NCBI RefSeq assembly: GCF_002954725.1
Contig: NZ_MSCQ01000002.1
Location: 248,106-312,105, forward strand
Origin: Photobacterium phosphoreum
GTDB lineage: Bacteria; Pseudomonadota; Gammaproteobacteria; Enterobacterales; Vibrionaceae
Length of the DNA stretch: 64,000 nt
Reading direction: 5' to 3'
Shown: in pieces, positions 16,248-46,897 of the stretch
Layout: each line of letters begins with the position of its first letter
How positions within the stretch are numbered: position 1 is the first letter of the stretch
The notes under the pieces: model-generated
Seen by the model: only the letters and a program-made list of their open reading frames with translations
What the model was told of the DNA's origin: nothing
Databases searched by the model: none
Position numbers and translations under genes: made by a program

Positions 16248-17462
16248 ATGTTTCAATATAAATACAGTGCGTTAATGTTAGCCATTACGGCAAGTGTCAC
16301 TGCGCCCGTCTATGCATCCACCGATGCAGTAATATCGTCAAATATCGTTTCACCGTATGTTATCGGTGGCGATGATGTTGATAGTAATACTCCCGCCACT
16401 GAAAATTTTATGGCGTCACTGCGCAATAATAAGGCGGGTGAAACCCCTTTTTGTGGTGCGACTATCATTAGTGATCAATGGGTATTAACCGCCGCTCACT
16501 GTGTGGTAAAGGGAAGTGATAAAAATGCTGAGGTAATACCACCCTCTGATATTACGATTACCGCAGGATTAATAGATAATAGTGAGCCATTAGAAGATCA
16601 TATTTTTTCTGCAACGCATGTAGTAGTTCATCCTGATTTTAGTCCTGTGGCTGTAGTAAAAAAAGATTCAGTTAGAGCCGAAGTTATAAGTACCGAATTA
16701 GATAATGATGTAGCACTGATTCGTGTTAATCGTAAATTTAAAGATGTTGCTCAAGTTAATTTACCAACACGGGAACAGTCTAGTGATATAGAAACCGAGT
16801 TAAAAAAACAATGGAATGATAGTGATTATCAAGGTTCGACAAGACATGATAAAAATCTCAAAGTACTCGGTTGGGGAGTCACCGATCCGTCTGGAGGTAG
16901 TGACTCAGGCTCTGATAATTTGCAGCAAGCGATGTTGAGTTTATTCCCGATAGATTTATGTTATAAGCGTATTGAATCGAATGATAATCCAGGATTAATT
17001 ATTGATAGCCCTGCTAACACAACTAAATTATGTGCATTACCGTCTGAAATTACAGATCATATAGACGGTACTCCTTATGGTGTAGATGCTTGTTTTGGAG
17101 ATAGCGGTGGTCCTATTTTAGCTCAAGATGATAATGATGAATGGTTACAAGTGGGTATTGTCAGTGGTGGTACTGTTGGAGATCTTGCTTGTGGTTCAAT
17201 GACACGTCCTGGTTTTTACGCTCGTGTCGGTAATTATACTGATTGGATTGTTGAGAACAGCAGTAAAAAACCAATGCATCCAATTACCCCACCTGATTTT
17301 CTTTCGGATAAGTATAACGATCAAGATGGTGATGGCTGCAATGACAGCATTTCAGCGAACAATTGCAATATAGGTAAAGATCGCGACGGTGGCGGTAGTT
17401 TTGGATTTATTGGCTTATTATTACTTTGTAGCGGTGCGTTTTTTAGACGTTTAAAAGTTTAA
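16248..17462 (+). CDS. Secreted trypsin-like serine protease with GlyGly-CTERM anchor
   Basis: A 404-aa S1 peptidase. A signal peptide of about 23 residues ends VYA. The mature part begins near VIGGDDVDSNTP and carries the catalytic triad H84 (LTAAHC), D154 (DNDVALI) and S286 (CFGDSGGPI), with paired cysteines. The tail has a calcium-like NDQDGDGCNDS stretch, then DRDGGGSFGFIGLLLLCSGAFFRRLKV in outline: a Gly-rich motif, hydrophobic helix and basic end. That is a GlyGly-CTERM signal, normally processed by rhombosortase on type II secretion substrates. It is monocistronic, with a terminator at 17531. Confidence 0.92.
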   Translation: MFQYKYSALMLAITASVTAPVYASTDAVISSNIVSPYVIGGDDVDSNTPATENFMASLRNNKAGETPFCGATIISDQWVLTAAHCVVKGSDKNAEVIPPSDITITAGLIDNSEPLEDHIFSATHVVVHPDFSPVAVVKKDSVRAEVISTELDNDVALIRVNRKFKDVAQVNLPTREQSSDIETELKKQWNDSDYQGSTRHDKNLKVLGWGVTDPSGGSDSGSDNLQQAMLSLFPIDLCYKRIESNDNPGLIIDSPANTTKLCALPSEITDHIDGTPYGVDACFGDSGGPILAQDDNDEWLQVGIVSGGTVGDLACGSMTRPGFYARVGNYTDWIVENSSKKPMHPITPPDFLSDKYNDQDGDGCNDSISANNCNIGKDRDGGGSFGFIGLLLLCSGAFFRRLKV

Positions 17463-18357: not shown

Positions 18358-20337
18358 ATGTCATTCTCAATTGTTCAACGTACTATTGCCGGATTTACGT
18401 TAATGCTGGCGCTTATTCTCATTATTGGTGGAATAAGTTACGGTAATACCAATAGAATCCATAGTCGATTACAACATGTTACTGAAGTATCAACACCGAT
18501 GGTTATCTCTGCAAGCCAGTTATTAGCCAGTTTGCGAGAAAATCAATTAAAGGTGATTGATTATCAAACAACCACTAATCTGCACTTATTAGCCTTAAAA
18601 AAGGTTGATGTTAAAAAAGCAGAACACCGTTTTCGAGTCCTTGAACAACAAGCTCAGATCTATGCTGTTGATGCGAGAGCACAAACTGAATTAGCAACGG
18701 CATTATTAGCAGCCAATACTTTTTTTGCTTCATCAAATACAGCGATGGAACGTTATAACCAATGGCTTACTGTTAAAGCCCAGCATCAACGATTAAACCT
18801 TGAATTTATTCATCTTGAAGATACCTATCAATCAGCCGCTAATTTACTTATTCAAAGTGCCTCGCATAAGCGATCTTTACGCAACCGTGCCGAGTTAATT
18901 ACTAGTGGCATCAGTCGTGATTTAAAAAATGTTCGTCGTGCAACGCCACAAACAGATCTCAAGATATTATCCGCAGTGTTAACCAAAGACATTGAAATGG
19001 CAAAACAAGGAATCGCACGAATTGACGTGGCTAAAGATGTTAAGGCACGTTACAGCAAAAACTTAAACCGTGTTTACGAACTCACGCTAGGGGCAAATAG
19101 TATGCTGGTCGTAATGGAAAAACAGCATCGTTTAGGTTCTCAATTGGTGGCGTTAAATGAAAAATCAAATCAACAAGTAACAGCGACTCAGCAAGCGTTA
19201 ACAGCTTATATGGAATATGCTCAAGCGAATGCTAAAGCAAGTCAACAAGCAGCGGATGAAGCTGCAAATCAAGCAACATTGAGTATTATTCTTGCCGCCA
19301 TTATTTCAGCTGTCATTGCTTTATTTGTTGCAGTGACGACGGCAAAAAGTATTCATACGCCATTAGCACGTATTAATTCAGTGCTCAAGAAAATGACTGC
19401 TGGTGATATGACCGAACGTACTAATTATCGTTCACGGTGTGAGTTTGGAGCGTTATCTGGTTCAATTGATCAGCTTTCAGCAAGCATGGCTGATATTTTA
19501 ACTCAGATAAACGTTGGCTCAGCGCATTTAGTCTCAGAAGCAACAAAAACAGCAACGACCAGCGAAAAAGCCATGAATCGGGTTGAAGATCAAAAATCCC
19601 GAACAGATCAAGTTGCAGCTGCAATCTTCGAATTAGAAGTGAGCGCCAAAGAAATTTCACGTTCGTCAGAACAGACCGTTGAAGAAGTTAATGAGGTTAA
19701 TCAAGCCGCGCAGCAAGGGCGAGAATTGGTATTAACCAGCCGTATGATCACCGAACAACTTGCCGTGGAAATGACAGAAGCCGTCGCCATTACTCAAAAG
19801 TTATCTGAATTTTCTAACAATATAGGCAGTATCTTAGGTGTTATTCGTAGTATTGCAGAACAAACTAATTTATTAGCCCTTAATGCCGCGATTGAAGCGG
19901 CACGTGCAGGCGATCAAGGACGTGGTTTTGCTGTTGTTGCCGATGAAGTGAGAGCGCTTGCTAATCGCACCCAGCAATCAACGGAAGAAATTCAGCAAAT
20001 GATCACTAATTTGCAGCAAAACACCTTACAAGTATCGCAAGTGATGACACGTTCACAAACACAAACCGAACAATGTGTAGAACAAGCCCGTTCTACTGAT
20101 GTTGCTTTACAAACTATCGTTGAACGGATGCATCTTATTTTAGAGATGGCCATTCAAGTTGCTCATGCGACTGAAGAACAAATCTCTGTGAGCCAAGATG
20201 TGTCGGAACACATTAATGGCATCGCTGCCGTGGCCTATAACGCTGAAAATGAAGCCAGAGAGTCCGCACAAAGCAGTGAAGTATTATCGCAACTTGCAGC
20301 TCAACAACGTCATTTAATTAAACGTTTTAAGGTCTAA
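18358..20337 (+). CDS. Methyl-accepting chemotaxis protein
   Basis: A 659-aa chemoreceptor. TM1 is about residues 8-28 and TM2 about 308-327, framing a large helical periplasmic sensor of about 280 residues. A HAMP domain follows (about 328-380) with [20 protein letters not shown]. The cytoplasmic signalling hairpin is clear at 497-535 ([38 protein letters not shown]). It has no C-terminal CheR-binding pentapeptide. The gene ends two bases before the solute-binding protein gene, so the two are cotranscribed and may share a ligand, as Tar does with MalE. Confidence 0.95.
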
Positions 20338-20339
20338 TT

Positions 20340-21854
20340 ATGCAACTTTCATCAATGTCTCAACGTCCTCGTTTTTTGCTTAATACCTTAGCGAAAGTGA
20401 TGTGTAGCGCGTTACTATTCATGCCAACGCTTGCGATCGCAGCGGTATCATCTACATCTACATCTACATCTACATCTACATCTACATCTACATCTACATC
20501 TACATCTACATCTACATCTACATCTACATCTACATCTACATCTACATCTACATCTACATCTACATCTACATCTACATCTACATCTATACGTGGTGAAGTG
20601 GTTATTGATTCATGGCGCAATGATGATGCCATTTGGAATGAAACGATTATTCCTGAGTTTAATAAACATTACCCCAATATTAAGGTGACATACCGATCAC
20701 CTACCGACCCCTCGACATTTAATCAACAGTTAGATAACGATCTTGCTCAAGGTACGGCGGGTGATTTGATTGCGTGTCGTCCCTTTGATGGCTCATTGGC
20801 GTTATTTAAACAAGGTCATTTTAGTGATATCACCGAAATGCAAGGGATGGAAAATTTCCCCAGTTTTGCGTTAGGTCCATGGCAAACGGATTCTGGTGCT
20901 CAGACCTTTTGCTTACCAATGGCATCGGTTATTCATGGCTTTTTTTATAACAAAACCATTTTTTCAGATTTAAACTTATCGGTTCCAACAACAACGACTG
21001 AATTTAATCAGGTACTTAAAAAGATAAAAGCCAGTCAACGTTATGTACCGATAGCATTAGGCACGAAAGACAAGTGGGAAGCTGCAACAATGGGGTTTCA
21101 AAATATCGGCCCTAATTATTGGCAAGGTGAAGATGGGCGGTTAGGGCTAATTCAAGCACAAGATCGTTTTACTGATGTGCCATATCTTAATGTGTATCGT
21201 GCCTTGGCGAGCTGGAGACCTTATTTAGGGGATAATTACCGCCAACGCAGTTACGCTGATGCCATTGAGTTGTTTAAAAAAGGTAAAGCGGCTATTTATC
21301 CTACGGGATCATGGGATATTTCTACCTTTGCAAATAGTGTTGATTTTGGTGTTTTTCCTCCGCCAGTCGTTAATAAAAGTGATGAATGTTACATCAGCGA
21401 TCATACCGATTTAGGCATGGGGTTGAATACTCAATCAGAAAAAAATCCTGCTGCGATAGCATTTTTGCAATGGATGACTACCGCTGAATTTGCAGAGCTA
21501 CTCACCAATGGTATTCCGGGATTTTTCTCATTATCGAATCACTTTTTTGATGTTAACCATCCTATCGCCAATGAAATGATGACGTGGAGAAATAATTGCG
21601 ATTCGACGATTCGTAATTCAGCCCAAATTCTTTCGCGCGGTAAGCCTGATTTTGAAGTTCAGCTATGGGAAACCAGTGTCGAAGTATTAAATGGCACCAT
21701 GACACCAGAAGAAGCGGTTACCGCAGTACAAATGGGATTAAGTAGTTGGTATCAACCGCAGCAAGATGCTAAAACCTTGGCTGAAATGTGCCAAGTGATA
21801 ACTTCTCGATCATCTTCAGATCAACAATCACTAGGTGCTAACAACACTTTATAG
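20340..21854 (+). CDS. Extracellular solute-binding protein (family 1) with Thr-Ser repeat
   Basis: A 504-aa periplasmic binding protein of the carbohydrate type. A signal peptide of about 35 residues ends LAIAA. Residues 39-82 are 22 perfect Thr-Ser dipeptides. The binding-protein fold begins at [18 protein letters not shown], with [45 protein letters not shown] and [10 protein letters not shown] as typical family-1 sites. No ABC permease or ATPase is nearby. The position between a chemoreceptor (2-base gap) and a two-component system suggests a sensing rather than transport role. The Thr-Ser tract would be an extended, possibly modified linker at the mature N-terminus. Confidence 0.88.
20448..20585 (+). 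repeat. Hexanucleotide tandem repeat (ACATCT)22
   Basis: TCATCT at 20448-20453 is followed by 22 perfect ACATCT units (20454-20585, 132 bases). Each unit encodes Thr-Ser. Six-base units keep the frame, so copy changes alter tract length without inactivating the gene. Confidence 0.97.
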
Positions 21855-21995
21855 TTAAGATGCGTTTAATTGTGTCAACAGTCACTTATTCAATCAGGCT
21901 AACAGTGTGAATGATAAGGTAATTGTTAATACATGGTTGATATCTACAGGTTAGGCATATTACCATGCCGATATTTTCTTTTTGGATGATTTATC

Positions 21996-22661
21996 GTGTC
22001 AAAAATATTAGTTGTTGATGATGATGTACAGTTGTGTGAATTACTGACTGAAGTGCTAGAAGATGAAGGCCATGATGTCAGTTGTGTTCATTGTGGTGAA
22101 TCGGCGATTGAGTATCTACAGAATAAAGGTGTCGATTTAGTATTACTTGATGTCATGCTACCGAATTTAGATGGAATGCAAGTTGCGCGGCGTATTTGCC
22201 AACGGTTTGCGACGCCTATTTTAATGTTAACGGCGCTAGGCGATGAAGCAACCATGCTTGATGGCTTGCAAGCTGGCGCTGATCATTTCATTACTAAACC
22301 ATTTAAAGTGCCAGAATTATTGACACGCATTAGTGCTATTTTACGTCGCGTTGGTCTTGAGCGTCAACGACATCAGATCCGTTCGGGTGAGGAAAAGATG
22401 GCCGCTGAAATGTCACGCTTGCCATTAACCAGTACTGAATCTGAACTGTTAGAATATTTAATTAAGCATGATGGGATCGTAGTATCAAAAGCCGAATTAC
22501 AAAAACAAGTGCTTAAAAAAGAACTGAGTCCCTTTGATCGTAATCTGGATATGCATATCAGTAATATACGCCGCAAAATTGTGTTAGCTGGAATGTCTAA
22601 ATTACACATAAAAACCATTCGTGGCAGAGGGTATAGTTATACCGAAACAGTTAATTATTAA
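21996..22661 (+). CDS. OmpR-family response regulator, CpxR-like
   Basis: A 221-aa regulator. The receiver domain (1-115) shows the acidic DDD at 8-10, phospho-acceptor D52 (LLDVMLPNLDG) and K101 (ITKPFK). The C-terminal winged helix (about 130-220) carries LTSTESELLEYLIKHDGIVVSK and SPFDRNLDMHISNIRRK, the last very like CpxR, and ends TIRGRGYSY. The start is GTG at 21996 behind GGATGA. The histidine kinase follows after 20 bases. Confidence 0.92.
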   Translation: MSKILVVDDDVQLCELLTEVLEDEGHDVSCVHCGESAIEYLQNKGVDLVLLDVMLPNLDGMQVARRICQRFATPILMLTALGDEATMLDGLQAGADHFITKPFKVPELLTRISAILRRVGLERQRHQIRSGEEKMAAEMSRLPLTSTESELLEYLIKHDGIVVSKAELQKQVLKKELSPFDRNLDMHISNIRRKIVLAGMSKLHIKTIRGRGYSYTETVNY

Positions 22662-22681
22662 GTTAATAAAAGGATCGTGTT

Positions 22682-24073
22682 GTGGAAAGCCTCTGTCAGC
22701 GTAAAACATGGTATAAACCGCATCAAAAGCATGGTCTGGTTGTACGCCTTTTCTCATATTTTACGGTTAGCTTGTTATTAATATTATTACTGCAAAATTT
22801 AGCTGAAATTGCGTTAGTTAAAACGATGTTGCAGGTGCCAAAGAAAGTCCAACAAAATATGCTCGTTATGGCAGAGCAAGCCCAGCAACTTATTGATACG
22901 GGTAATAAGCAACAGCTAGGGCAGTGGGAACAACAACAGCCTTATTACTTGTTTGTACTTGATAAAGAACAACATGAAATGGGGGATAGAAAAATGCACC
23001 CTCATTTTGCGTTTAAACTTAACTATGCTCGCGGCATTAATACCCTGTTAGATTCACGTGTTAATCAACCTATCTTTGCGATTCCATTAAAAGACGGCAA
23101 TCAACTGATGGTGCAATTGCCCTCTCAATTGCATCCGGCTAAATATTTTTCATTTTATTTTGGGTTGATTCAAGTTGTGATCGCAGTATTAATTTTGCTG
23201 ATGTTTTCATTTCTTATTGCTCGTTATTTACAGCGTCCATTAAATACATTGCGAGAGGCGAGTCGCAGCCTTGCTAATGGTGATTTTTCCGTAAGAGTTG
23301 CTAATGCAGTGAGTGATAGTACGGTAGAGTTTAAATCACTCGCGACCGATTTTGATGAAATGGCGGAACAAATTCAGATGCTGTCTGAACGTCAGCGCCG
23401 CTTAATTCGAGATGTATCACATGAACTGCGGACACCGTTGGCTCGCCACAACTTATCATTACATTTAATGAGAAAACGGGTTGCACCTGAACATCAGCAT
23501 CTTGTTGATCGCTTAGAACGCGAATCAGAGGAAATGAATCAACTGGTGAATGAAATTTTAGAATTTAACCAGTTACAAAATACAACGGAAAATGTCAATT
23601 TAATCCCGCTTGATGTTGAGAGTTTATGTTTAGCCACGGTGCCTGATATTGAAACGTTGCTTGGAAAACAACAAACATTAACGACAGCGATTGATAATAA
23701 TATGCCATTAGTAATGGGTGATAGTCGTTTAATTGTGCGGGCTGTAAACAACTTACTGGGCAACGCGATGAAATATGCAGGTGAGCAGGCTCATATCCAG
23801 TTAATTTCAGCGCTGGTGGTCATTGAAGGGCAAGCATTTGTGCAGTTAAGTGTAGAAGATGATGGACATGGTATTGCTGAGCAACATCTCAAGCGTATTT
23901 TTGATCCATTTACTCGTATTGAAGGCGCACGTGATAAACAATCAGGTGGGTATGGGCTTGGCTTAGCTATTGTTAAAGAAGCAATGGCAGTAATGCATGG
24001 TGCGGTAAATGCCGAAAATCGTCAGCCGCAAGGGTTATCTATTCAGCTCTTGTTACCAGTCATGAATAAATAA
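22682..24073 (+). CDS. Sensor histidine kinase, CpxA/RstB-like
   Basis: A 463-aa membrane kinase. TM1 is about residues 25-45, with a periplasmic loop of about 110 residues, and TM2 about 158-180. HAMP runs 181-235. The dimerisation/phosphotransfer helix has H247 in RDVSHELRTPLARHNL. The ATPase part shows the N box (VNNLLGNAMKYA), G1 (VEDDGHGI), F box (FDPF) and G2 (GGYGLGLAIVKEA). The GTG start at 22682 has AAAGGA eight bases upstream. It pairs with the CpxR-like regulator; the binding protein two genes upstream could deliver its stimulus. Confidence 0.92.
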   Translation: MESLCQRKTWYKPHQKHGLVVRLFSYFTVSLLLILLLQNLAEIALVKTMLQVPKKVQQNMLVMAEQAQQLIDTGNKQQLGQWEQQQPYYLFVLDKEQHEMGDRKMHPHFAFKLNYARGINTLLDSRVNQPIFAIPLKDGNQLMVQLPSQLHPAKYFSFYFGLIQVVIAVLILLMFSFLIARYLQRPLNTLREASRSLANGDFSVRVANAVSDSTVEFKSLATDFDEMAEQIQMLSERQRRLIRDVSHELRTPLARHNLSLHLMRKRVAPEHQHLVDRLERESEEMNQLVNEILEFNQLQNTTENVNLIPLDVESLCLATVPDIETLLGKQQTLTTAIDNNMPLVMGDSRLIVRAVNNLLGNAMKYAGEQAHIQLISALVVIEGQAFVQLSVEDDGHGIAEQHLKRIFDPFTRIEGARDKQSGGYGLGLAIVKEAMAVMHGAVNAENRQPQGLSIQLLLPVMNK

Positions 24074-24385: not shown

Positions 24386-25912
24386 ATGATTAATAAGAAA
24401 TATATAAAAAAAGCAATTGTGAGTGCTATCGCGCTAGGTATCGTTGGTTATGGTGCTATTGTGTACACTGTACATAAAGAAGATGTCACTTTAGCCAATA
24501 AACGCTTAGATGCCTTACCACTGCATAATATTGATGATCTCTCAGCACAAGCGATGCGATTATTAGCTGAAAAGGGCTGTGCAGATTGCCATACGCTCAA
24601 TAGCCCATTGCCATTTTATGCTAAAGTGCCTGGCGTGAAGCAAACAATGCAAGTTGATATCGACAAAGCTAATCAATCCTTTGAGCTTGCACCTGTTGAA
24701 CAAGCTGTTGAGCATCATCATGCGGTGAGTCAAGTTGCTCTTGCCAAATTAGAGTTTGTTCTTAACAACAATTCAATGCCAATTCCTAAATATCTCGCCA
24801 TACACTGGCCATCAGCATACCTCAACAGTGCTGATAGACAGTTACTACTCGATTGGATCAAGCATCAACGCCAGCAATACTATCCAAACCCAACTGCCGC
24901 ACCACAATTTAAGAATTTGGCTGTTCAGCCTATTCATACCGTATTTAAAACAGATCCTGCTAAAGTTGCGTTAGGTTTATCGCTGTACAACAACATTCAC
25001 TTATCAGCCAACAATAAGTATGCCTGTTCGAGTTGTCACTCTATTCATACTGGCGGTACGGATAACTTACCGACCAGTTTAGGCATTAATAATCTTGATG
25101 ATCCAATGAATGCGCCAACGGTGTATGACTCTGCATTTAATATGAGTCAGTTCTGGAATGGTCGTGCTGCTGATTTAGCGGCTCAAGCGGCGGGCCCTAT
25201 TTTTAACCCCGTTGAAATGGGATCAAAAAACTGGGGTAATATCGTTGCTAAACTTAAACAAGATCCTCAATTAGTTAAATTATTTGATGCTTCTTATAAA
25301 GACGGTATGAACGGGGCAAATATCACCAATGCTATTGCTGAATATGAGAAAACATTAATCACCACCAATAGCCGTTTTGACCAATATTTAGAAGGTAATT
25401 TAAGTGCATTAACGCCTGAAGAAATCGAAGGCTTTAAATTGTTCTTAAAAACAGGCTGTCAAACTTGTCATGTCGGTCAAAGTATGGGCGGACAGTCATA
25501 CGAGAAGATGGGTGTTTATAGTAGCTTCTTTGGTAACCTTAAAGGCAAACATATTGAGGGTGATAAAGGTCGTTATTTAGTTACCCACGATAAAAAGCAA
25601 ATGCATTACTTTAAAGTCCCTAACCTGCGTAATATCGCGGTGACAGGGCCTTATTTCTCTGGTGGTCGCGCAGCAACTTTATCTGAAGCGGTCAATGCGA
25701 TGGCGAAATACCAATGTAATACTGATTTTTCACCTAAAGAAACCAAAGCCATGGTCGCTTATTTAAAAACGCTAACAGGTGAATATAAGGGTAAGACATT
25801 AACCAACCCTAATTGCCATGATGTGAATGGTCAGCAAGTGTGTAGCAGTGCTAAAGATCAAGTCTGGAAACAAGTAACAGGGCGTAAATTACCAACTGAA
25901 ACACAAGCTTAA
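24386..25912 (+). CDS. Triheme cytochrome c peroxidase (YhjA/Ccp-like)
   Basis: A 508-aa protein. An N-terminal helix (about 10-28) lacks a clear cleavage site, so it is probably an inner-membrane anchor facing the periplasm. Three CxxCH heme sites are visible: CADCH (65-69), CSSCH (214-218) and CQTCH (358-362). The first domain is the extra N-terminal heme domain of the YhjA type; the other two match the classical di-heme peroxidase, with FWNGRAADL and a final ALSEAV-type segment (TLSEAVNAM). It would reduce H2O2 with quinol-derived electrons, allowing peroxide detoxification or respiration under low oxygen. The perfect FNR box upstream fits this role. Confidence 0.92.
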   Translation: MINKKYIKKAIVSAIALGIVGYGAIVYTVHKEDVTLANKRLDALPLHNIDDLSAQAMRLLAEKGCADCHTLNSPLPFYAKVPGVKQTMQVDIDKANQSFELAPVEQAVEHHHAVSQVALAKLEFVLNNNSMPIPKYLAIHWPSAYLNSADRQLLLDWIKHQRQQYYPNPTAAPQFKNLAVQPIHTVFKTDPAKVALGLSLYNNIHLSANNKYACSSCHSIHTGGTDNLPTSLGINNLDDPMNAPTVYDSAFNMSQFWNGRAADLAAQAAGPIFNPVEMGSKNWGNIVAKLKQDPQLVKLFDASYKDGMNGANITNAIAEYEKTLITTNSRFDQYLEGNLSALTPEEIEGFKLFLKTGCQTCHVGQSMGGQSYEKMGVYSSFFGNLKGKHIEGDKGRYLVTHDKKQMHYFKVPNLRNIAVTGPYFSGGRAATLSEAVNAMAKYQCNTDFSPKETKAMVAYLKTLTGEYKGKTLTNPNCHDVNGQQVCSSAKDQVWKQVTGRKLPTETQA

Positions 25913-29979: not shown

Positions 29980-32067
29980 ATGTTTTCTAAAAGTCAGCTA
30001 ACACTATTGATTGGTGCAGTATTATCAGCACCGATTGCTCATGCAGAAATTACAAATACAGATGAGCATATGGTGGTCACTGGACGTGATTATGGCTATA
30101 AGGCTGACACGAATTCGACAGCAATGCGTATGGAGATGACTCAATTAGAAACGCCAGGACAAGTTGCTGTTATTGATGAGAAGCTAATTGATGAACAGCG
30201 TGCAAGTACATTAGGTGAAGTGTTACAAAACGATGCCAGCATTTCTGCGGGCGGCACCAGTCGTAACCGTGAACGTTTTTCTCTACGTGGTTTTGAATTA
30301 GGCAGTAGTAGTGGTTTCTTACGCGATGGTCACCAGCATTGGTCGCATTACCGTCAGCCTGTTGAATTATTAGAGCGTGTAGAAGTGATGAAAGGCCCTG
30401 CAGGTTTGCTTTATGGGCAATCAGCGCCGGGCGGCTTGGTTAACATGGTATCTAAAAAGCCAACTTACGACACTCAAATGAATTTTAGCCAAGATATTGG
30501 TTCAAATAACCATACTCGTAGTGTGCTTGATGTAAGTGGTTCGCTAAATGCAGATCAAACATTACGTGGACGCGTGGTATTAGCGAAAGAAGATTACGAT
30601 TCATGGCGTAAATTCAGTGATGGCTCAACACCGTCAACCGATCGCTTTGTTGGTGGGATGTTCCTTGATTATGATGTCAATGATAACGTGACGGTGTCAC
30701 TACATTATGATCGTACTCAAGATAACGGCAGCGTTGATTCAGGTGCTTACATTGTAGATGGCAAGCCAGTGATGGGTCGTGATCATGTGTGGGATGCACA
30801 GTGGTCTAAAATTGATAATGATGTTCAGAATATGGGCTTTGATGTTAAAGCACAATTAACTGATACATGGGCATTAAATACTGGTTTTAACTACCAAGAT
30901 TTCGTACGTAACGATAAAGAAAGTTACCCAGATTTTAGTAACTTTGATCAAAATGGCACTATTAAACAAGGTGGTAGTGATCGCCATGATGAGTGGGCAT
31001 TTAAAACCGCGTATACAGATTTTGTTGGTGAGTTCGATACATTAGGCGTGCAGCATCAGTTATTAATTGGCGCAAACTGGTTAGGGTATAGTTACGATCG
31101 TTTCCAGCGTTCATTTAATTCAGTGGATGTAAAACCCGGTGATACAGCTCCAACACCAACGTTTTCTAACGGTAAGCCAAAACAATCACATTCATCATAC
31201 GATGCTTGGGGTTTCTATGCACAAGATATGATCACTGTGAATGATTATTGGCAAGTGTTAGCAGGGGTGCGTTTTGATCGCCAAGTGAAAGATGGATTAG
31301 CGGAAGAAGCAGTATCGCCTAAGTTGGCGGCAATTTTCCACCCAGCCGAAAATGGTTCTATTTACTTAGCATATTCTGAAAGCTTTGAGCCTCAAGGTGC
31401 GGTGTCGTCTAGTTCTAAAAACTATATCAATGATGGTTCTCAGTTAGATCCGTTACGTGGTAAACAATATGAATTAGGTACTAAGTGGGAATTATTTGAT
31501 AATCGTTTATTCGCATCTGCTGCAGTGTTTAATATTACTCAAGAAAATACCGCTATTGATGTTGAAGTGGGTAATGGCTGGTATGAAAAAACGCAAGCTG
31601 GTGAGCGTGTTCATAATGGTGTAGAGGTTGCTCTGCAAGGTAAGATCACCGATAAATTAAGTATGAACGCATCAGCGATGTACCTTGATGCTAAATACAC
31701 TAAAGATCAAAACTACCAAGGTAATCGTCCGGCAGATGTGCCAGAGTTTGCTGCAAGCGTATGGTCAACATATAACGTAACTGAGGCAACTGATGTTAAC
31801 CTTGGTGTGATTTATGAAGGTTCTCGCTTCGGTGATGCAGCGAATACCTTTAAGAAAGACGGTTACACACGTGTTGATGTTGGTGTCGCGCACACTTACA
31901 AGTATGACGATAAACTGGATATCGTTGGTCGTGTAAATGTAGAGAACCTATTTGATACAGATTACATGGCCGGTGGCGGCTCAACTAGCAAAGACTATGT
32001 AGGTGCTACTGGTGTAACACTAGGCGAAGGCCGTAACTTCATGGCAACCATTGAGTTTAAATACTAA
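29980..32067 (+). CDS. TonB-dependent siderophore receptor
   Basis: A 695-aa outer-membrane receptor. A signal peptide ends AHA (about residue 22). A TonB-box-like segment (HMVVTGR) precedes the plug domain (about 50-165) with TPGQVAVIDEKLIDEQRA, RERFSLRGFEL and VEVMKGPAGLLYGQSAPGGLVNMVSKKP, diagnostic of the FhuA/FoxA-type siderophore receptor family. The remainder is the 22-strand barrel, ending NFMATIEFKY. It probably imports a ferric hydroxamate siderophore; the exact ligand cannot be read. Energy likely comes from the TonB system encoded next. The Fur-like box upstream fits iron control. Confidence 0.93.
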   Translation: MFSKSQLTLLIGAVLSAPIAHAEITNTDEHMVVTGRDYGYKADTNSTAMRMEMTQLETPGQVAVIDEKLIDEQRASTLGEVLQNDASISAGGTSRNRERFSLRGFELGSSSGFLRDGHQHWSHYRQPVELLERVEVMKGPAGLLYGQSAPGGLVNMVSKKPTYDTQMNFSQDIGSNNHTRSVLDVSGSLNADQTLRGRVVLAKEDYDSWRKFSDGSTPSTDRFVGGMFLDYDVNDNVTVSLHYDRTQDNGSVDSGAYIVDGKPVMGRDHVWDAQWSKIDNDVQNMGFDVKAQLTDTWALNTGFNYQDFVRNDKESYPDFSNFDQNGTIKQGGSDRHDEWAFKTAYTDFVGEFDTLGVQHQLLIGANWLGYSYDRFQRSFNSVDVKPGDTAPTPTFSNGKPKQSHSSYDAWGFYAQDMITVNDYWQVLAGVRFDRQVKDGLAEEAVSPKLAAIFHPAENGSIYLAYSESFEPQGAVSSSSKNYINDGSQLDPLRGKQYELGTKWELFDNRLFASAAVFNITQENTAIDVEVGNGWYEKTQAGERVHNGVEVALQGKITDKLSMNASAMYLDAKYTKDQNYQGNRPADVPEFAASVWSTYNVTEATDVNLGVIYEGSRFGDAANTFKKDGYTRVDVGVAHTYKYDDKLDIVGRVNVENLFDTDYMAGGGSTSKDYVGATGVTLGEGRNFMATIEFKY

Positions 32068-32082
32068 GGTTTACGCCAAATA

Positions 32083-32112
32083 AACAAGGGGAAGTATTAA
32101 CTTCCCCTTGTT
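32083..32112 (+). terminator. Hairpin after the receptor gene
   Basis: Perfect 13-bp stem (32083-32095 with 32100-32112) and a 4-nt loop. No clear T-run follows, so it may only partly block readthrough into the TonB operon. Confidence 0.6.
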
Positions 32113-32251
32113 GTGATCTGAATGTAGCGGCTTATAAACTGTTAATCACAATTGTTATTGTTTATAGTTCGCGACCTTTGCAGTACTTTTTATTTTTAAC
32201 ATTCCCTTTTTTGTTTTTTTGGTTATTACAGATAACGATTGATTAAATATT

Positions 32252-33025
32252 ATGAATTTTATTAAAACTAGCCTTGCTATTGTTATTCTCAGCGTCACCA
32301 CTGGCGCTCATGCTTCTAATCTCGATAACGCACGTTCGATTGAGAACAAGACCAATACAGCATCTGCTGTGAGTCAGGATCACATTGATAAAAGTGCTGA
32401 TTCTGTGTTGTCAATGAAAGCCAACATCGAGCAGTTACAAGAAGAAGTAAAAAACTTAACTATCTATCATGATCATTTAGCGCGATTGGTTCAAAATCAG
32501 GCGCAAGAAGTGGCTTCTATCGATCAACAAATTGCAGATATTAAACAGACTCGTCAGGGCGTAGTACCACTGATGTACCAAATGATTGATGGTTTAAAGA
32601 CGATTGTTGAAAACGACAAACCGATTAAACATCAAGCCCGTTTAGCGCGAGTGAATAAACTTGAAACCATGATGTCACAAGCTGATATTAGTGATGCCGA
32701 GAAATTCCGTCGTATTTTAGAAGCCTACCAAATTGAAATGGATTACGGCACTAAACTCGCCGCTTACCAAGCGAAAATCACTCTTGCTGATAATAAAACG
32801 ATTGAAGTGAATGTACTCCATTTAGGGCGTATTGCTTTGGTTGCGCGCAGTTTAAATGGTAGCCATTACTGGAGCTGGAATACAGCGGCTAAACAGTGGC
32901 AAGTGATTGATGCGAGCGAAGGTGCAAATATCGATAAGGCGTTTGCGATTGCTGATAACCAAGTTGCCCCAAGTTTGATTACTTTACCTGTTTCAGGTTT
33001 TACAACTAACGTAGAGAGTAAATAA
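32252..33025 (+). CDS. DUF3450 family periplasmic protein (TonB-system associated)
   Basis: A 257-aa protein. A signal peptide ends AHA (about residue 22). A coiled-coil region follows (ADSVLSMKANIEQLQEEVKNL ... QEVASIDQQIADI), then the DUF3450 core with PLMYQMIDGLKTIVENDKPI, RLARVNKLETMMSQADIS and LARSLNGSHYWSW-like residues. DUF3450 proteins commonly precede the extended ExbB-like gene in TonB2-type clusters of Vibrio and relatives and are thought to work in the periplasm with TtpC. It is the first gene of a tight six-gene operon; the next ATG is one base after its stop. Confidence 0.88.
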   Translation: MNFIKTSLAIVILSVTTGAHASNLDNARSIENKTNTASAVSQDHIDKSADSVLSMKANIEQLQEEVKNLTIYHDHLARLVQNQAQEVASIDQQIADIKQTRQGVVPLMYQMIDGLKTIVENDKPIKHQARLARVNKLETMMSQADISDAEKFRRILEAYQIEMDYGTKLAAYQAKITLADNKTIEVNVLHLGRIALVARSLNGSHYWSWNTAAKQWQVIDASEGANIDKAFAIADNQVAPSLITLPVSGFTTNVESK

Positions 33026-33026
33026 C

Positions 33027-34394
33027 ATGAAACTAAAAGCGTTAGTTGCCGCCTTATGTGTCGCAAATATGCCATTTGCGGTTAATGCCGAATCGGTAGT
33101 GAAACAAGCACAACAAGAGCAAAGCCAACAAACTCAGCATAATATTCAACGTGAAGTGGGCTTTAACCACACTCAGCAAGATGTGAAAACACAATACAAT
33201 GCGTTACTTGCTGAGCGTAATAAATTAAAAGCCGCTACAGAAGTATTAAGCACAACCTTTAGTGCCAATGAACAACACTTATCGACCTTAGAGCAACAAT
33301 TACGTTTAGAAAGTGGCAGTTTAGGTGAGCTATTTGGGGTAGTGCGTCAAACGGCAAAAGACGTTCAAGCTGAACAACAACATGCAGTAACCGCTATTGA
33401 TAACAGCCAAGATAACGCAGTTGTTAACGAGATAGTCGCCGCAAAAGTTTTACCGTCAATGGCTCAACTACACGGCTTATGGCAAGCAATGACTGATCAG
33501 ATTGTTGCTAGCGGACAAATTGCTAAAGTGACCGTACCGTATATTAATGGTGATGGTGAGCAAAGTGATATTCAGGCATTGCGTTTAGGCAGTATTGGCT
33601 TAGTCGGCGACAACGGTTATTTACGTTGGGATGGCAGCCAACATGTAGCAATGGCGTATTTACAGCAACCTGAACATGCACCGACATTGGCTGATTACAA
33701 TCAACTAATATCAACAGGCAATGACATGCTGGTGGTTGATCCTTCACGTGGGGTGATGCTAGAGCAATTAGCCCAAGCACCGACATTAATGGATCGTCTG
33801 CAAGCAGGTGGCGCGGTTGGTAAAATTATTTTATTGCTACTTGCTATTGGTGCCGGTATTGCGATTTTCCGCGGCACAAAATTGGCGATGATTCGTCAAC
33901 AAATTAAAGCACAACTTAAACAACCGTCTAAGCCGGGTAATAATCCATTAGGTCATATTTTAGCGGTATACAACAAAGAACAAAGCCGCAGTGTTGAAGC
34001 ATTAGAATTACGTTTATTAGAAGCGATTGTTGATGAACAGCAAGGATTAGAGAAAGGCTTATCAATGCTGAAACTGTTTGCTGCTTTAGCACCGATGTTA
34101 GGTTTGCTAGGTACAGTAACAGGTATGATTGAAACCTTCCAAGTGATCACCCAGTTTGGTAATGGCGATCCAAAAGTAATGGCGGGGGGTATTTCAATGG
34201 CACTGGTGACCACTGTTCTTGGCTTGGTTGCGGCAATGCCGTTGTTACTGGCACATAATGTTTTAAGCTCGCAAGCTGAGAACATTCGTATGATTTTAGA
34301 AAAGCAGGGTATTAGCCTTGTGGCGGAACAAGCCGAGAAAAACGATCAAAATGGTATTAAAAATTCTGGCATGACAACTGAACAGGCCGCCTAA
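33027..34394 (+). CDS. TtpC-like MotA/TolQ/ExbB proton channel family protein
   Basis: A 455-aa protein, much longer than ExbB. A signal-like N-terminus (ends VNA, about residue 22) is followed by about 230 residues of periplasmic coiled-coil and beta sequence, then a membrane helix about 268-287 (VGKIILLLLAIGAGIAIF) and the MotA/TolQ/ExbB domain (about 320-440) with LAPMLGLLGTVTGMIETFQVI and GGISMALVTTVLGLVAAMP. This is the layout of TtpC, the fourth component required by Vibrio TonB2 systems. It overlaps exbB by one base (TAATG). Confidence 0.9.
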   Translation: MKLKALVAALCVANMPFAVNAESVVKQAQQEQSQQTQHNIQREVGFNHTQQDVKTQYNALLAERNKLKAATEVLSTTFSANEQHLSTLEQQLRLESGSLGELFGVVRQTAKDVQAEQQHAVTAIDNSQDNAVVNEIVAAKVLPSMAQLHGLWQAMTDQIVASGQIAKVTVPYINGDGEQSDIQALRLGSIGLVGDNGYLRWDGSQHVAMAYLQQPEHAPTLADYNQLISTGNDMLVVDPSRGVMLEQLAQAPTLMDRLQAGGAVGKIILLLLAIGAGIAIFRGTKLAMIRQQIKAQLKQPSKPGNNPLGHILAVYNKEQSRSVEALELRLLEAIVDEQQGLEKGLSMLKLFAALAPMLGLLGTVTGMIETFQVITQFGNGDPKVMAGGISMALVTTVLGLVAAMPLLLAHNVLSSQAENIRMILEKQGISLVAEQAEKNDQNGIKNSGMTTEQAA

Positions 34395-34927
34395 TGGATA
34401 GCAGCGTATTACAAAGCTGGTGGTTATCGCTGTCGCACTTTATGGCGCAAGGCGGTGTGATTCTATGGTGGTTAGCCGCTGTGGTTGCGGTGTTGTGGTT
34501 ATTAGTGTTTGAACGGGTTATTTACCTTGTGTTTTACTTTCCACAACAACGACAGCAATGGATAGCATTATGGGCAGCACGTGCTGATCATCAATCTTGG
34601 TATGCACATGCAATTCGAGATGGTTGGTTGGCGGATGCTAAAATAGCGTTAAATAAAAACCTTAATTTTATTAAAGTGTTAGTCGCTATTTGTCCCATGC
34701 TTGGTTTGCTTGGTACTGTGACTGGGATGATTTCAGTGTTTGATGTAATGGCTACTCAAGGCAGTAGCCAACCTCGATTGATGGCATCAGGGATCTCACT
34801 GGCTACACTGCCAACAATGGCGGGCATGGTGGCAGCATTAGCGGGAATGTTTATTCATGCCCGCTTGGCAAAAGCATGCCAAATGCGTGAATTGAAATTA
34901 GAAAAATCATTAAGGAGTCAACAATGA
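34394..34927 (+). CDS. exbB: ExbB-type biopolymer transport protein (TonB2 system)
   Basis: A 177-aa short ExbB with three membrane helices. N-terminal helix about 22-45; the conserved pair of helices carries VAICPMLGLLGTVTGMISVFDVMATQG and GISLATLPTMAGMVAALAGMFIH. ExbB pentamers with ExbD form the inner-membrane proton channel that powers TonB. It overlaps exbD by four bases (ATGA), indicating coupled translation. Confidence 0.92.
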   Translation: MDSSVLQSWWLSLSHFMAQGGVILWWLAAVVAVLWLLVFERVIYLVFYFPQQRQQWIALWAARADHQSWYAHAIRDGWLADAKIALNKNLNFIKVLVAICPMLGLLGTVTGMISVFDVMATQGSSQPRLMASGISLATLPTMAGMVAALAGMFIHARLAKACQMRELKLEKSLRSQQ

Positions 34928-35328
34928 GACTCAGTCGTCGCTCGTCAGTGCGTGAAGATGCACAAATAGATTTAACCTCGATGTTAGATATCGTTTTCAT
35001 CATGTTGATTTTCTTTATTGTTACCAGTTCTTTTGTACGTGAATCTGGGGTTGAAGTGAATCGACCTCAAGCAAGCCATGTTGTTAGCCAAAAAGATGCG
35101 GGTATTTTTGTTGCTATTACCGCAGCCAATGATATTTACATAGATAAGCGCGTCGTTGATCCTGAACGAGTTCAAGCAACATTAGAACATATGTTAACTG
35201 AACAGCCAGATGCTGCATTAGTGATCCAAGCGGATGAACATGCTTATAACGGTACGGTCGTTAAGGTAATGGATGCTGCGAAAGGCGCAGGGGTGAAGAA
35301 TATTGCTTTGGCGGCGGAGAAAAACTAA
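34924..35328 (+). CDS. exbD: ExbD-type biopolymer transport protein (TonB2 system)
   Basis: A 134-aa protein with one N-terminal membrane helix (about 17-37) preceded by the key acidic residue in IDLTSMLDIVFIMLIFFIVTSSF, where Asp of MLD is the proton-path aspartate. A periplasmic ExbD domain follows (VQADEHAYNGTVVKVMDAAKGAGVKNI in outline). Standard family length. It overlaps tonB by one base. Confidence 0.93.
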   Translation: MRLSRRSSVREDAQIDLTSMLDIVFIMLIFFIVTSSFVRESGVEVNRPQASHVVSQKDAGIFVAITAANDIYIDKRVVDPERVQATLEHMLTEQPDAALVIQADEHAYNGTVVKVMDAAKGAGVKNIALAAEKN

Positions 35329-35978
35329 TGATGCGCATATTGATGGCACTGCCATTGGCGCTGGCGATGGCTTTAGGTTTGTTTACACTAATGGCATGGA
35401 TGGTGGATAACGGTAACCATCAACGTCAAGATAATTCACCGCCTTTAGCGTTTAACATGGTGATGGTAGAACACGAGCAAGCGGCACAACGTCGTCAGCG
35501 TGTTGCACCGCCGCCACCAGAGACACCTACGCCACCACCAGAAGCCCAACCATCGCAGTCACAAGCAGCAACATCAACGGCTATGCCGATGGCGTCGATT
35601 CCTAGCTTAGGCTTAGATACCTCGATTCATGGCTTAGCGGTGAATGCGCCTAAATTTACTGATTTCAGTAGTGCAGCAGCGATGGGTGATGGGTTAGGTA
35701 AATCGCAACAGGCGATGCCGCTTTATAGAGCAGAGCCGCGTTATCCTGCACGAGCTTTACGCCAAGGAAAAGAAGGCTATGTGGTGCTTAAATTTACCAT
35801 TGATACCCAAGGTCGACCGATAGATATCGCTATTATGGATGCCAAGCCCCGTCGTTTATTTGATAAAGAAGCGATCCGCGCATTACGTAAGTGGAAATAC
35901 CAACCACAAGTCGTTAATGGTACTGCCATGGCACAACAAGGGCAGACAGTACGTCTTGAATTTAGGTTAAACCAATAA
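35328..35978 (+). CDS. tonB: TonB family energy transducer (TonB2-like)
   Basis: A 216-aa TonB. The membrane anchor is about residues 4-25, followed by a short proline-rich linker (APPPPETPTPPPEAQPSQSQ) and a C-terminal TonB domain about 130-214 (EPRYPARALRQGKEGYVVLKFTIDTQGRP, FDKEAIRALRKWKYQP). The short linker is typical of TonB2-type proteins. It should link the ExbB/ExbD motor to receptors such as the siderophore receptor upstream. ATG at 35328 overlaps the exbD stop; 35331 is an alternative. Confidence 0.92.
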   Translation: MMRILMALPLALAMALGLFTLMAWMVDNGNHQRQDNSPPLAFNMVMVEHEQAAQRRQRVAPPPPETPTPPPEAQPSQSQAATSTAMPMASIPSLGLDTSIHGLAVNAPKFTDFSSAAAMGDGLGKSQQAMPLYRAEPRYPARALRQGKEGYVVLKFTIDTQGRPIDIAIMDAKPRRLFDKEAIRALRKWKYQPQVVNGTAMAQQGQTVRLEFRLNQ

Positions 35979-37165
35979 TGAAAAAATTAGCTTTTATTAT
36001 CGCATTAACCTTATCGGCCTCATTGCCATTATCAAATGCTTATGCAAGTGGCGGTCAATTGTCACAAGCAACAGCTAACAAAGTGCAGCGCGCCAATAAT
36101 TTACAGTTAGATGATAAGCTTGATCAAGCGGTTGCTATTCTTGCTGAAATGAATCCCAGTAGCGCTTACGATAAAGCTTATGTACAGAGGATGTTAGGGG
36201 TATTTTATTGGCAACAAGGTAAAACATCACAAGCAGTGAAATTACTGACAAAAGCGGTAAACAGTGGTCTATTGCAAGATGATCAGGCATGGACGACTGA
36301 ACGTATGTTGGCGGATATTTTGCTGTCTGATGAGAAATACAGCCAAGCTTTGCCGCATTATTATAAGTTAACTAAAAATATTCCTGCGAAACAAAAAGGT
36401 GATGAGCTCTGGCTACGTATTGCACAAGCACATTATCAGCAATCACAGTGGCAGCAAGTTTTAACCGCAATGAAGCATTATGATGGTTATCGGATTAAAG
36501 ATAGCATGTCACCTTTGTCGATTAAGCTTGGCGCACAGTTACAACTTCAACAGTGGCAAGGTGCATCAGCAACCCTGAATCGTTTGATTGTGCTGGAACC
36601 GAATAAGTTAATTTGGTGGCAACAACTGGCTAGCATTCAAATGCGAACAGGTAAAAATGCTGATGCATTAGCAACGTTAAAATTAGCTAAATACCAAGGG
36701 GTAGCACTGAGTCAGCAAGATCTTAAAGTGTTGGCACAGTTATATGCCCAACGTGGAATTCCAGAGCGAGCAGCCGAGCAAATAGCGGCCTTGAAGGATG
36801 CCAATAGTGATAAAACATTATTGATTGAACAAGCAAACTATTGGCAAATGGCACGCGAGTGGAAAAAAGCGATCAAACTCTGGACTAAGGTAGCAGCGAA
36901 AGATAATCACTATCGTTGGCAATTAGCGCAATTATTAGTTCAAGAAGGTGATTATAACCAGGCTTTGGTTGAATTAGATAAAGTGAAGCGTAAAGATAAA
37001 CGTGCAGAGGTCGAATTAGCTAAAGTACGGGTCTATTACAAAATGAACAATCTCGATCAAGCGATTATACATGCTAAGCAAGCGGATAATATTCAACCGT
37101 CTTCTGCCGCTAAAAGTTGGGTTAAATATTTAGCGCAAATGCGTAAGATGGATATAACTACTTAA
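35978..37165 (+). CDS. TPR-repeat protein of the TonB2 cluster
   Basis: A 395-aa protein with a signal peptide (ends AYA, about residue 23) and tetratricopeptide repeats across the rest, e.g. AYVQRMLGVFYWQQGKTSQAVKLLTKAV, RIAQAHYQQSQWQQVLTAM and LASIQMRTGKNADALATLKLA. Such TPR proteins close TonB2 clusters in Vibrio and probably act as periplasmic scaffolds; the exact function is not established. It overlaps tonB by one base, and a terminator follows at 37205. Confidence 0.88.
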   Translation: MKKLAFIIALTLSASLPLSNAYASGGQLSQATANKVQRANNLQLDDKLDQAVAILAEMNPSSAYDKAYVQRMLGVFYWQQGKTSQAVKLLTKAVNSGLLQDDQAWTTERMLADILLSDEKYSQALPHYYKLTKNIPAKQKGDELWLRIAQAHYQQSQWQQVLTAMKHYDGYRIKDSMSPLSIKLGAQLQLQQWQGASATLNRLIVLEPNKLIWWQQLASIQMRTGKNADALATLKLAKYQGVALSQQDLKVLAQLYAQRGIPERAAEQIAALKDANSDKTLLIEQANYWQMAREWKKAIKLWTKVAAKDNHYRWQLAQLLVQEGDYNQALVELDKVKRKDKRAEVELAKVRVYYKMNNLDQAIIHAKQADNIQPSSAAKSWVKYLAQMRKMDITT

Positions 37166-45245: not shown

Positions 45246-45997
45246 GTTTTGGGCCAAGTATTGAGATTGCAAACCTTGAGTTGCAATACGGTGAAAACCA
45301 GATTTTATCTAACATCAACCATACCTTTGAAGCAGGTCAATGCCATGTGGTGATGGGACCTAACGGCGGTGGAAAAACATCGTTATTACGTTCAATTTTA
45401 GGCTTAACACCGTTTAAAGGTCAGATTGATATTTTATGGGATGATGCCGCCAATAACGGTAAACCGGGTTCTGTCGGTTATGTGCCTCAAAAAGCGATGT
45501 TTGAACAAAGTTTACCGCTAACAGTGATGGATTTTATTTTATTAAATTTAACTCGTTCACCGCTATTTTGGCGTAAACGTCAGCAAGATAAGCTATTTGC
45601 ATTGAGTCAACTTGAACGCGTCGGGATGGCGAATCGTGCTGATCGTCGCATGGGGCAGTTATCAGGTGGTGAGCAACAACGGGTTTTGTTTGCTCAAGCG
45701 TTATTGGATGATCCTGATTTATTAGTCCTTGATGAGCCAACAACTGGCATGGATGAACAGGGTGTACGTTATTTAGAATCATTAATCCATGAGTTTGTTG
45801 CACAAGGTAAAACAGTATTAGCGGTGCACCATGATGTAACCGCTGTGCGTCGTTTGAATGCCCAAGTGCATGTGGTTAACCGTATTCTTGTTGATTCTGG
45901 TCATCACTCTGACGTATTGATCCCTGAAAAAATCGAACGGCTATTTAATCATTATAGCCATACGCCCATTGCGGTAAATAAACACGAGGTCGCGTAA
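45242..45997 (+). CDS. Metal ABC transporter ATP-binding protein
   Basis: A 251-aa ABC ATPase with Walker A GPNGGGKTSLLRS, Q-loop GYVPQKAMFEQSLPLTVMDFI, signature LSGGEQQRVLFAQALL, Walker B LLVLDEPTTGMD and H-loop VLAVHHDVTAV. It matches the Zn/Mn (ZnuC-like) group. It is translationally coupled on both sides (ATGA upstream, TAATG downstream). Confidence 0.94.
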   Translation: MSFGPSIEIANLELQYGENQILSNINHTFEAGQCHVVMGPNGGGKTSLLRSILGLTPFKGQIDILWDDAANNGKPGSVGYVPQKAMFEQSLPLTVMDFILLNLTRSPLFWRKRQQDKLFALSQLERVGMANRADRRMGQLSGGEQQRVLFAQALLDDPDLLVLDEPTTGMDEQGVRYLESLIHEFVAQGKTVLAVHHDVTAVRRLNAQVHVVNRILVDSGHHSDVLIPEKIERLFNHYSHTPIAVNKHEVA

Positions 45998-46872: not shown

Positions 46873-46897
46873 TCGCTGTATTTTTTAAGGAATTAAC

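What the first reader, a model, noticed from the sequence alone, without database searches (positions are those of the whole stretch)
18358..24073. Chemoreceptor - binding protein - CpxRA-like two-component module without a transporter
The chemoreceptor and binding-protein genes are two bases apart, and a two-component pair follows on the same strand. The binding protein is of the sugar-importer type, but no permease or ATPase is present. The simplest reading is a sensing-only system in which one periplasmic protein reports a ligand both to a chemoreceptor (behaviour) and to a histidine kinase (transcription). I know of chemoreceptor/binding-protein pairs, but not of this four-part arrangement as a described system.
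Basis: inference. Interest (0 to 1): 0.7.

Follow-up and report, generated by a model that had tools for sequence, protein, structure and literature searches.

The report
Sugar-sensing chemoreceptor pair beside siderophore regulators
Two neighbouring genes in a marine bacterium look like a sensor pair in which a floating sugar-binding protein reports to a swimming-control receptor, while the two regulator genes after them most likely belong to a separate, iron-related system.

Summary
Unit 1 is chemoreceptor + binding protein (MCP-SBP). The MCP lies directly upstream of the SBP in 59 of 59 distinct loci, in Vibrionaceae and Motilimonas; an Aeromonas record has the pair too. All 51 of 296 genomes with the MCP ligand domain also have the SBP. 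The window genome has no match to the permease of the SBP's importer relatives, so "sensing-only" is supported for this pair. Those relatives (47-52% identical) sit in sugar import operons, 6 of 10 examined with amino-sugar genes, so I infer an amino-sugar ligand. Unit 2, regulator and kinase, is not CpxRA; by synteny and similarity it is PeuRS-like, the siderophore/alkaline-pH regulator of Vibrio. It mostly occurs without the SBP, and outside Photobacterium the two are apart in 9 of 9 genomes that have both. Five related genomes lack MCP and SBP but keep the kinase, sensor domain equally conserved. A binding-protein-to-kinase link is therefore very unlikely. SBP-dependent chemoreceptors are a known kind; this family is a new member with a testable ligand prediction.

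The parts
18358..20337 (+). Chemoreceptor (methyl-accepting chemotaxis protein), 659 aa; all-helical periplasmic domain about residues 30-300, HAMP, MCP signalling domain
20340..21854 (+). Sugar-type solute-binding protein (SBP_bac_1), 504 aa; proposed soluble ligand sensor for the chemoreceptor
20449..20586 (+). Perfect 23-copy hexamer array (CATCTA) encoding a (Thr-Ser)n stretch between signal peptide and binding domain; not seen in the SBPs of the relatives printed
21855..21995 (+). 141-base SBP to regulator spacer; its last 50-80 bases are conserved in genomes with and without MCP-SBP, i.e. it goes with the regulator gene (own promoter inferred)
21996..22661 (+). OmpR-type response regulator, PeuR-like; separate unit
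22682..24073 (+). CpxA-like histidine kinase with PF16750 sensor domain, PeuS-like; separate unit
29980..32067 (+). TonB-dependent outer-membrane receptor in the PeuA position; conserved neighbour of the regulator-kinase pair in other Vibrionaceae
32252..37165 (+). DUF3450, TtpC-like MotA/ExbB, ExbB, ExbD, TonB, TPR protein: TonB system operon that follows the receptor, like VPA0151-0156
16248..17462 (+). Trypsin-like protease gene upstream (context; left neighbour of the MCP-SBP gap in relatives)
24386..25912 (+). MauG/di-haem peroxidase-like gene between the kinase and the receptor operon (context)

Best explanation
The stretch is two independent units that lie next to each other. Unit 1 is MCP + SBP. 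The SBP is exported, binds a small carbohydrate (inferred: an amino sugar such as GlcNAc, a chitin oligosaccharide or MurNAc) and, when closed around it, docks on the membrane-distal part of the chemoreceptor's helical periplasmic domain, changing CheA activity and so swimming direction. It has no permease partner here; its family also serves ABC importers in other bacteria. Unit 2 is a PeuRS-type two-component system that controls a downstream TonB-dependent siderophore receptor operon and takes no input from the SBP. Supported by computation: the gene pairing, its joint absence, the missing permease, the fold classes and the independence of unit 2. Inferred: the ligand, the docking, the behavioural output and the target of unit 2. 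Confidence is for the two-unit reading with MCP-SBP as a working pair; the amino-sugar ligand alone I put at about 0.55.
Against: No binding or behaviour was tested. In Photobacterium all 17 SBP genomes also have the kinase (Fisher p 0.002, not corrected for descent), and the regulator follows the SBP in 12 of 17, in several clades, so some benefit of linkage there cannot be excluded. McpS, which binds its ligand directly, fits the MCP domain as well as TorS does. The ligand inference rests on gene neighbours of relatives at 47-52% identity; 4 of 10 of those operons lack nagA, murQ and GlcNAc kinase. dN/dS of the kinase's sensor region is slightly higher among genomes without MCP-SBP (0.049 against 0.039; domain alone 0.059 against 0.037), though it rises likewise in the kinase core (0.090 against 0.058) and dS is near saturation. 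A Fur-like site was not found in front of the regulator gene here (best 11 of 19, p 0.8), unlike what is reported for peuR.
Confidence: 0.8

Rival explanations
1. One reading: one binding protein reports its ligand both to the chemoreceptor and to the histidine kinase, giving a four-part behaviour-plus-transcription system.
For: Regulator directly after the SBP in 12 of 17 SBP-bearing Photobacterium genomes, all four genes in a row in 6; all 17 have the kinase; 10 of 11 characterised SBP-activated kinases are encoded beside their SBP (PMC11113362).
Against: Kinase present without SBP in 21 Photobacterium and 96 other genomes; both present but apart in 9 of 9 other genomes. Without MCP and SBP the kinase's sensor region is unchanged: 88.7% identity among losers, 89.7% among keepers. 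Regulator and kinase are themselves apart in nine Photobacterium genomes mapped. The same paper shows adjacent SBP and kinase genes that do not act together.
Confidence: 0.04
2. The regulator-kinase pair controls transcription of the MCP-SBP genes, or is transcribed by read-through from them, without the SBP being its signal source.
For: 141-base spacer without a clear terminator; terminator-like sites in the region are no more than chance (6 found, 5.1 expected, sd 2.7).
Against: The last 50-80 bases before the regulator are conserved in genomes without MCP-SBP and at the separate locus of P. aquimaris, so the regulator has its own upstream region; MCP-SBP occur elsewhere without this pair next door.
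Confidence: 0.08
3. The SBP serves an ABC importer encoded elsewhere and the chemoreceptor only borrows it, as MBP and Tar do.
For: 10 of 10 examined distant relatives are importer components; 49 of 56 SBP genomes have some match to such a permease.
Against: No such match in this genome or in 6 other SBP genomes; the matches listed for the others are only 24-32% identical. No such permease in 66 of 68 SBP flank stretches (7 of them repeats of the same locus, lengths uneven); the two exceptions carry a distant SBP of 28% identity.
Confidence: 0.07
4. The chemoreceptor binds its ligand directly and the neighbouring SBP is an unrelated passenger.
For: McpS, a direct-binding receptor, has the same fold at equal Z.
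Against: Pairing in 59 of 59 loci and joint absence with deletion traces.
Confidence: 0.05

Closest known systems
BasB-BasT and CosB-CosT of Halobacterium (binding-protein-dependent transducers)
   Same: Transducer plus putative substrate-binding protein (one co-purification passage seen, PMC3579733); gene adjacency and absence of a transporter are recalled
   Different: Archaeal; amino acids and osmoprotectants (recalled); sequences not compared here
CtpL-PstS (phosphate taxis, Pseudomonas aeruginosa)
   Same: The loaded SBP binds the chemoreceptor's large periplasmic domain (PMC4926252, passages)
   Different: PstS also works in the Pst importer and is encoded with it, not with ctpL; here no importer and strict gene adjacency
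TorT-TorS
   Same: Sensor domain fold to which a periplasmic binding protein docks (3o1i)
   Different: TorS is a histidine kinase for TMAO; here the output is a chemoreceptor
Sugar/amino-sugar ABC importers of Alphaproteobacteria and Deinococcus (SBP beside two permeases, often NagA and MurQ)
   Same: SBP 47-52% identical; of 116 positions conserved in the MCP-linked SBPs, 82 have the same residue in at least 9 of 10 importer SBPs
   Different: There permeases follow the SBP; here a chemoreceptor gene precedes it and no permease is near
PeuRS-PeuA-TonB2 of Vibrio parahaemolyticus
   Same: Regulator-kinase-receptor followed by the TtpC2-TonB2 gene block (PMC4141801); in V. campbellii the regulator is 69.5% and the kinase 48.7% identical to the window's
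   Different: In the window about 6 kb with a MauG-like gene separate kinase and receptor; ligand here unknown; the V. parahaemolyticus proteins themselves were not compared

Membership tests
SBP-dependent chemoreceptor couple | Chemoreceptor with periplasmic ligand domain and MCP signalling domain | tested here: met
SBP-dependent chemoreceptor couple | Exported binding protein of SBP fold | tested here: met
   Fold and family. Signal peptide judged by eye from the sequence, not predicted
SBP-dependent chemoreceptor couple | Conserved genetic pairing (not required of the family, 3 of 11 known couples) | tested here: met
   59 of 59 loci; in L063, L087 and L098 the MCP reading frame is shorter than 450 aa
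SBP-dependent chemoreceptor couple | Loaded SBP binds the receptor and triggers taxis | not testable with these tools
   needs protein binding and taxis assays
Sensing-only (importer-free) SBP | No cognate permease in the genome | tested here: met
   0 matches at E 1e-5 in G000; against 30 of the genome's own permeases the best are 24% to PotC, E 1e-11 in that small set, and 25-30% to a sulfate/phosphonate-type permease; 20 of 33 permease matches typed, none as sugar permease
SBP-activated histidine kinase (LuxPQ/TorST type), for the kinase here | Kinase conserved together with its SBP | tested here: not met
CpxRA | Kinase over the CpxA model cut-off | tested here: not met
   182 bits, cut-off 486; CpxA proper at C1:2576747 with 626 bits
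PeuRS | CpxA-like kinase and regulator upstream of TonB-dependent receptor and TonB2 operon | tested here: met
PeuRS | Fur-regulated promoter of the regulator gene | tested here: inconclusive
   best match to a recalled consensus 11 of 19, p 0.8 in the window; of 27 regulator upstreams one (L127) has a clear site, 16 of 19
PeuRS | Response to siderophore and alkaline pH | not testable with these tools
   needs expression assays

The most novel reading that the evidence does not exclude
A dedicated, importer-free amino-sugar chemotaxis module: an SBP of the GlcNAc/MurNAc-type ABC importer family is paired with a TorS-like chemoreceptor instead of permeases, has spread as a two-gene cassette through Vibrionaceae, Motilimonas and Aeromonas, and was lost as a unit more than once. 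It would let marine bacteria swim to chitin or cell-wall breakdown products that they do not take up by this route.
Probability: 0.45. Interest if true: 0.55.

Novelty: new member of a known kind. Interest (0 to 1): 0.38.

Why it matters
SBP-mediated chemotaxis is well known, but in only 3 of 11 studied couples are receptor and SBP genes adjacent (PMC11113362). A widespread, strictly paired, importer-free couple with a predicted amino-sugar ligand would be a clean experimental model for how a binding protein signals to a receptor without competition from a transporter. It also gives a candidate receptor for taxis to chitin or peptidoglycan fragments in marine Vibrionaceae. For annotation, it warns that gene adjacency alone does not make a four-part system, and it puts a likely name on the neighbouring regulator pair.

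Tried and rejected
Four-part sensing system: rejected on distribution, joint absence and kinase constraint. Kinase as CpxA: rejected. Solved structure of the kinase's sensor domain: no match up to E 1 by sequence; in the 60 of 72 rows shown, the profile search matched only from about residue 166 (just before HAMP) onwards. Fur site before the regulator: not supported in the window and in 26 of 27 upstreams; before the TonB-dependent receptor all five Photobacterium genomes tested have a 14-of-19 site, p 0.01-0.05 each (consensus recalled). Terminator or promoter between SBP and regulator: nothing above chance. PF13407 search: wrong SBP family, no use. Permease typing covered 20 of 33 matches, six of them again at a laxer cut-off; 13 were not typed, so direct searches with the importer relatives' permeases carry the claim (the first print of own-genome matches was cut, repeats it at E 1e-4). 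Loss traces: L110 holds MCP fragments, which shows loss there; in L107-L109 and L111 loss is inferred from the retained borders. dS is near saturation. The SBP-versus-importer tree has an unreliable root (very long outgroup branch); the SBP and MCP trees agree on the main groups but not on the deep and long branches. Literature: the ten searches showed no paper on this MCP-SBP pair in their listings; listings were capped (e.g. 15 of 24, 12 of 156, 8 of 184) and cover open-licence PMC papers only.
Full report
WHAT IS THERE. The four genes lie at the stated coordinates on the + strand with the domains of a chemoreceptor, a sugar-type binding protein, an OmpR-type regulator and a CpxA-like kinase. 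MCP and SBP are 2 bases apart. The genome has 4.55 Mb in 5 contigs; the nearest named SBPs are those of Photobacterium kishitanii, piscicola, aquimaris and malacitanum at 87-89%.

UNIT 1: MCP-SBP IS A REAL PAIR. A search of 296 Vibrionaceae genomes found the SBP in 58 (E 1e-20) and the MCP ligand domain in 51 (E 1e-20); all 51 are among the 58. Of the 7 others, two (G275, G294) hold only a distant SBP of 28% identity without this MCP, and five (G045, G073, G116, G165, G179) have the MCP next door but too divergent or too fragmentary for the cut-off. In a map of 59 distinct SBP loci the MCP was immediately upstream on the same strand in 59 of 59; L102 and L103, the two distant cases, and repeats of the same locus were dropped before the count. 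In three of the 59 (L063, L087, L098) the MCP reading frame is under 450 aa, and in two (L068, L105) the SBP frame is short. Genera named in the records are Photobacterium, Vibrio, Enterovibrio, Grimontia, Veronia and Motilimonas. An Aeromonas caviae record has the pair too, 8 bases apart, with SBP 54.6% and MCP ligand domain 37.4% identical. Other genes around the pair differ between genera. In trees of the SBP and of the MCP ligand domain two Photobacterium genomes (G125, G099) fall in the Enterovibrio/Grimontia/Veronia clade in both, though not at the same spot within it, so the two genes probably moved together.

NO IMPORTER. The genome has 33 ABC permease (PF00528) matches. Twenty were scanned with NCBIfam at E 1e-50; 14 matched models of glycine betaine/choline, amino-acid, phosphate, molybdate, polyamine, thiamine and Sap/peptide permeases. 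The other six, re-scanned at E 1e-12, resemble amino-acid, sulfonate/taurine and sulfate/molybdate/phosphonate permeases. Thirteen of the 33 were not typed. A direct search with one permease of the SBP's importer relatives, in 56 of the 58 SBP genomes (the two distant ones left out), found nothing at E 1e-5 in 7, this genome included; in the rows listed for the other 49 the identity is 24-32%. Eight such permeases have no match in the window and none in 66 of 68 SBP flank stretches, of uneven length and with 7 repeats of the same locus; the two exceptions are L102 and L103. Some flanks hold other permeases that resemble those of this genome. The only ABC ATPase match in the window belongs to a zinc-type importer at 44337-46872.

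LIKELY LIGAND. In 41 plasmid records the SBP has relatives, from 55% identity (Aeromonas) through 46-52% (Alphaproteobacteria, Deinococcus) down to 24%. I examined 10 annotated records outside Aeromonas, at 47-52%. In 10 of 10 the SBP is followed by two sugar permease genes. In 5 of 10 both nagA and the N-acetylmuramic acid 6-phosphate etherase gene are close by; one more has a GlcNAc kinase gene; two have a PIG-L deacetylase gene; the two Deinococcus records have none of these. Of 116 positions at least 95% conserved in the MCP-linked SBPs, 82 have the same residue in at least 9 of 10 importer SBPs. I therefore infer an amino sugar, with chitin or peptidoglycan breakdown products as first candidates.

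UNIT 2: A SEPARATE SYSTEM. In 52 Photobacterium genomes the regulator is in 40, the kinase in 38, the SBP in 17. All 17 SBP genomes have the kinase (Fisher p 0.002, not corrected for descent); outside Photobacterium the association is reversed: of 244 genomes 41 have the SBP, 105 the kinase and only 9 both (p 0.003), and in none of the 9 are they neighbours (positions). Of the 17, the regulator follows the SBP in 12, is apart in 4 (31 kb, 57 kb or other contigs), and one is cut by contig ends. All four genes stand in a row in only 6 of the 17; in 5 a divergent gene sits between regulator and kinase and in one the kinase is displaced and broken.

NATURAL DELETIONS. Five close relatives have regulator-kinase without MCP-SBP (L107-L111). 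Compared with P. piscicola, L110 retains the first bases and an internal piece of the MCP gene; L107 and L108 resume in the last bases of the SBP gene; L109 and L111 resume in the SBP-regulator spacer. I read this as joint loss of MCP and SBP with at least two different footprints, while the last 50-80 bases before the regulator stayed. In P. aquimaris the regulator-kinase pair lies 31 kb from MCP-SBP with that same upstream stretch. The kinase's N-terminal and sensor region (30-160) is about equally conserved: 89.7% amino-acid identity among keepers (6 pairs), 88.7% among losers (10 pairs), 88.8% between them (20 pairs); dN 0.059, 0.061, 0.061. dN/dS is a little higher among losers (0.049 against 0.039), as it is in the kinase core (0.090 against 0.058); dS is near saturation. 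A kinase that had lost its signal source should have drifted more in its sensor than in its core; it did not clearly do so.

IDENTITY OF UNIT 2. In 8 of 10 stretches fetched from other Vibrionaceae genera the pair is followed, directly or after one or two genes, by a TonB-dependent receptor of one family; a ninth (L192) has the same order with a more distant kinase; L191 lacks it. Receptor-DUF3450-TtpC-like-ExbB-ExbD-TonB-TPR is in the window at 29980-37165. This corresponds to peuR-peuS-peuA-VPA0151-0156 of Vibrio parahaemolyticus, where PeuRS raises expression of the ferric enterobactin receptor PeuA under iron limitation, alkaline pH and enterobactin (PMC4141801: abstract, passages and two sections seen). 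That paper lists V. campbellii among the species with peuRS; a V. campbellii record here has the block, regulator 69.5% and kinase 48.7% identical to the window's. The paper finds peuRS only in the V. harveyi group among the species it checked, whereas the kinase match here is wider (143 of 296 genomes), so some of these may be relatives rather than orthologues. The V. parahaemolyticus proteins were not compared, and a Fur-like site before the window's regulator was not found. CpxRA is excluded: CpxA proper is elsewhere in the genome.

IN PRINT. SBP-stimulated receptors are an established mechanism (PMC9602780, passages). Of 11 characterised SBP-activated kinases, 10 are next to the SBP gene, but only 3 of 11 chemoreceptor couples are; the same paper found adjacent SBP and kinase genes that do not act together (PMC11113362, passages and discussion section). 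My searches (under Tried and rejected) showed nothing on this pair.

VERDICT. Observation confirmed; the four-part system not supported; the importer-free MCP-SBP couple well supported as a unit, and as far as my searches go an undescribed family with a testable ligand. No biochemical step is shown.

Noticed in passing
window 20449-20586: Perfect 23-copy CATCTA array giving a Thr-Ser repeat right after the SBP signal peptide; the relatives' SBPs printed have none, and of 52 Photobacterium genomes five have a run of four or more exact copies, the other four elsewhere in the genome. Length changes would stay in frame.
   Followed up: partly
L173:8462-12023 (G000:C2, about 1324461-1328022): Another SBP_bac_1 gene directly after a regulator-kinase pair in the same genome: a better candidate for an SBP-to-kinase system than the one reported.
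   Followed up: partly
L172:1825-5201 (G000:C1, about 1533824-1537200): SBP gene overlapping a 711-aa GGDEF protein gene: a possible SBP-controlled diguanylate cyclase.
   Followed up: partly
L120-L125 and L127-L138 (nine Photobacterium genomes): Regulator and kinase orthologues are far apart: regulator beside the protease region, kinase near the TonB receptor operon in most, with a divergent gene of about 210 aa next to it. A split two-component pair.
   Followed up: partly
L082:13752-15032 (G127): Kinase gene displaced and interrupted by stops.
   Followed up: no
window 55025-60966: Arrays of a 312-base tandem repeat (2 to 9 copies), suggesting a large repetitive protein gene.
   Followed up: no
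window 24386-25912: MauG/di-haem peroxidase-like gene between the kinase and the TonB receptor operon, found in only 6 of the stretches mapped.
   Followed up: no
window 44337-47806: Zinc-type ABC importer: ZnuA-family protein, ATPase, ABC-3 permease, and a second, weak ZnuA-family match.
   Followed up: partly
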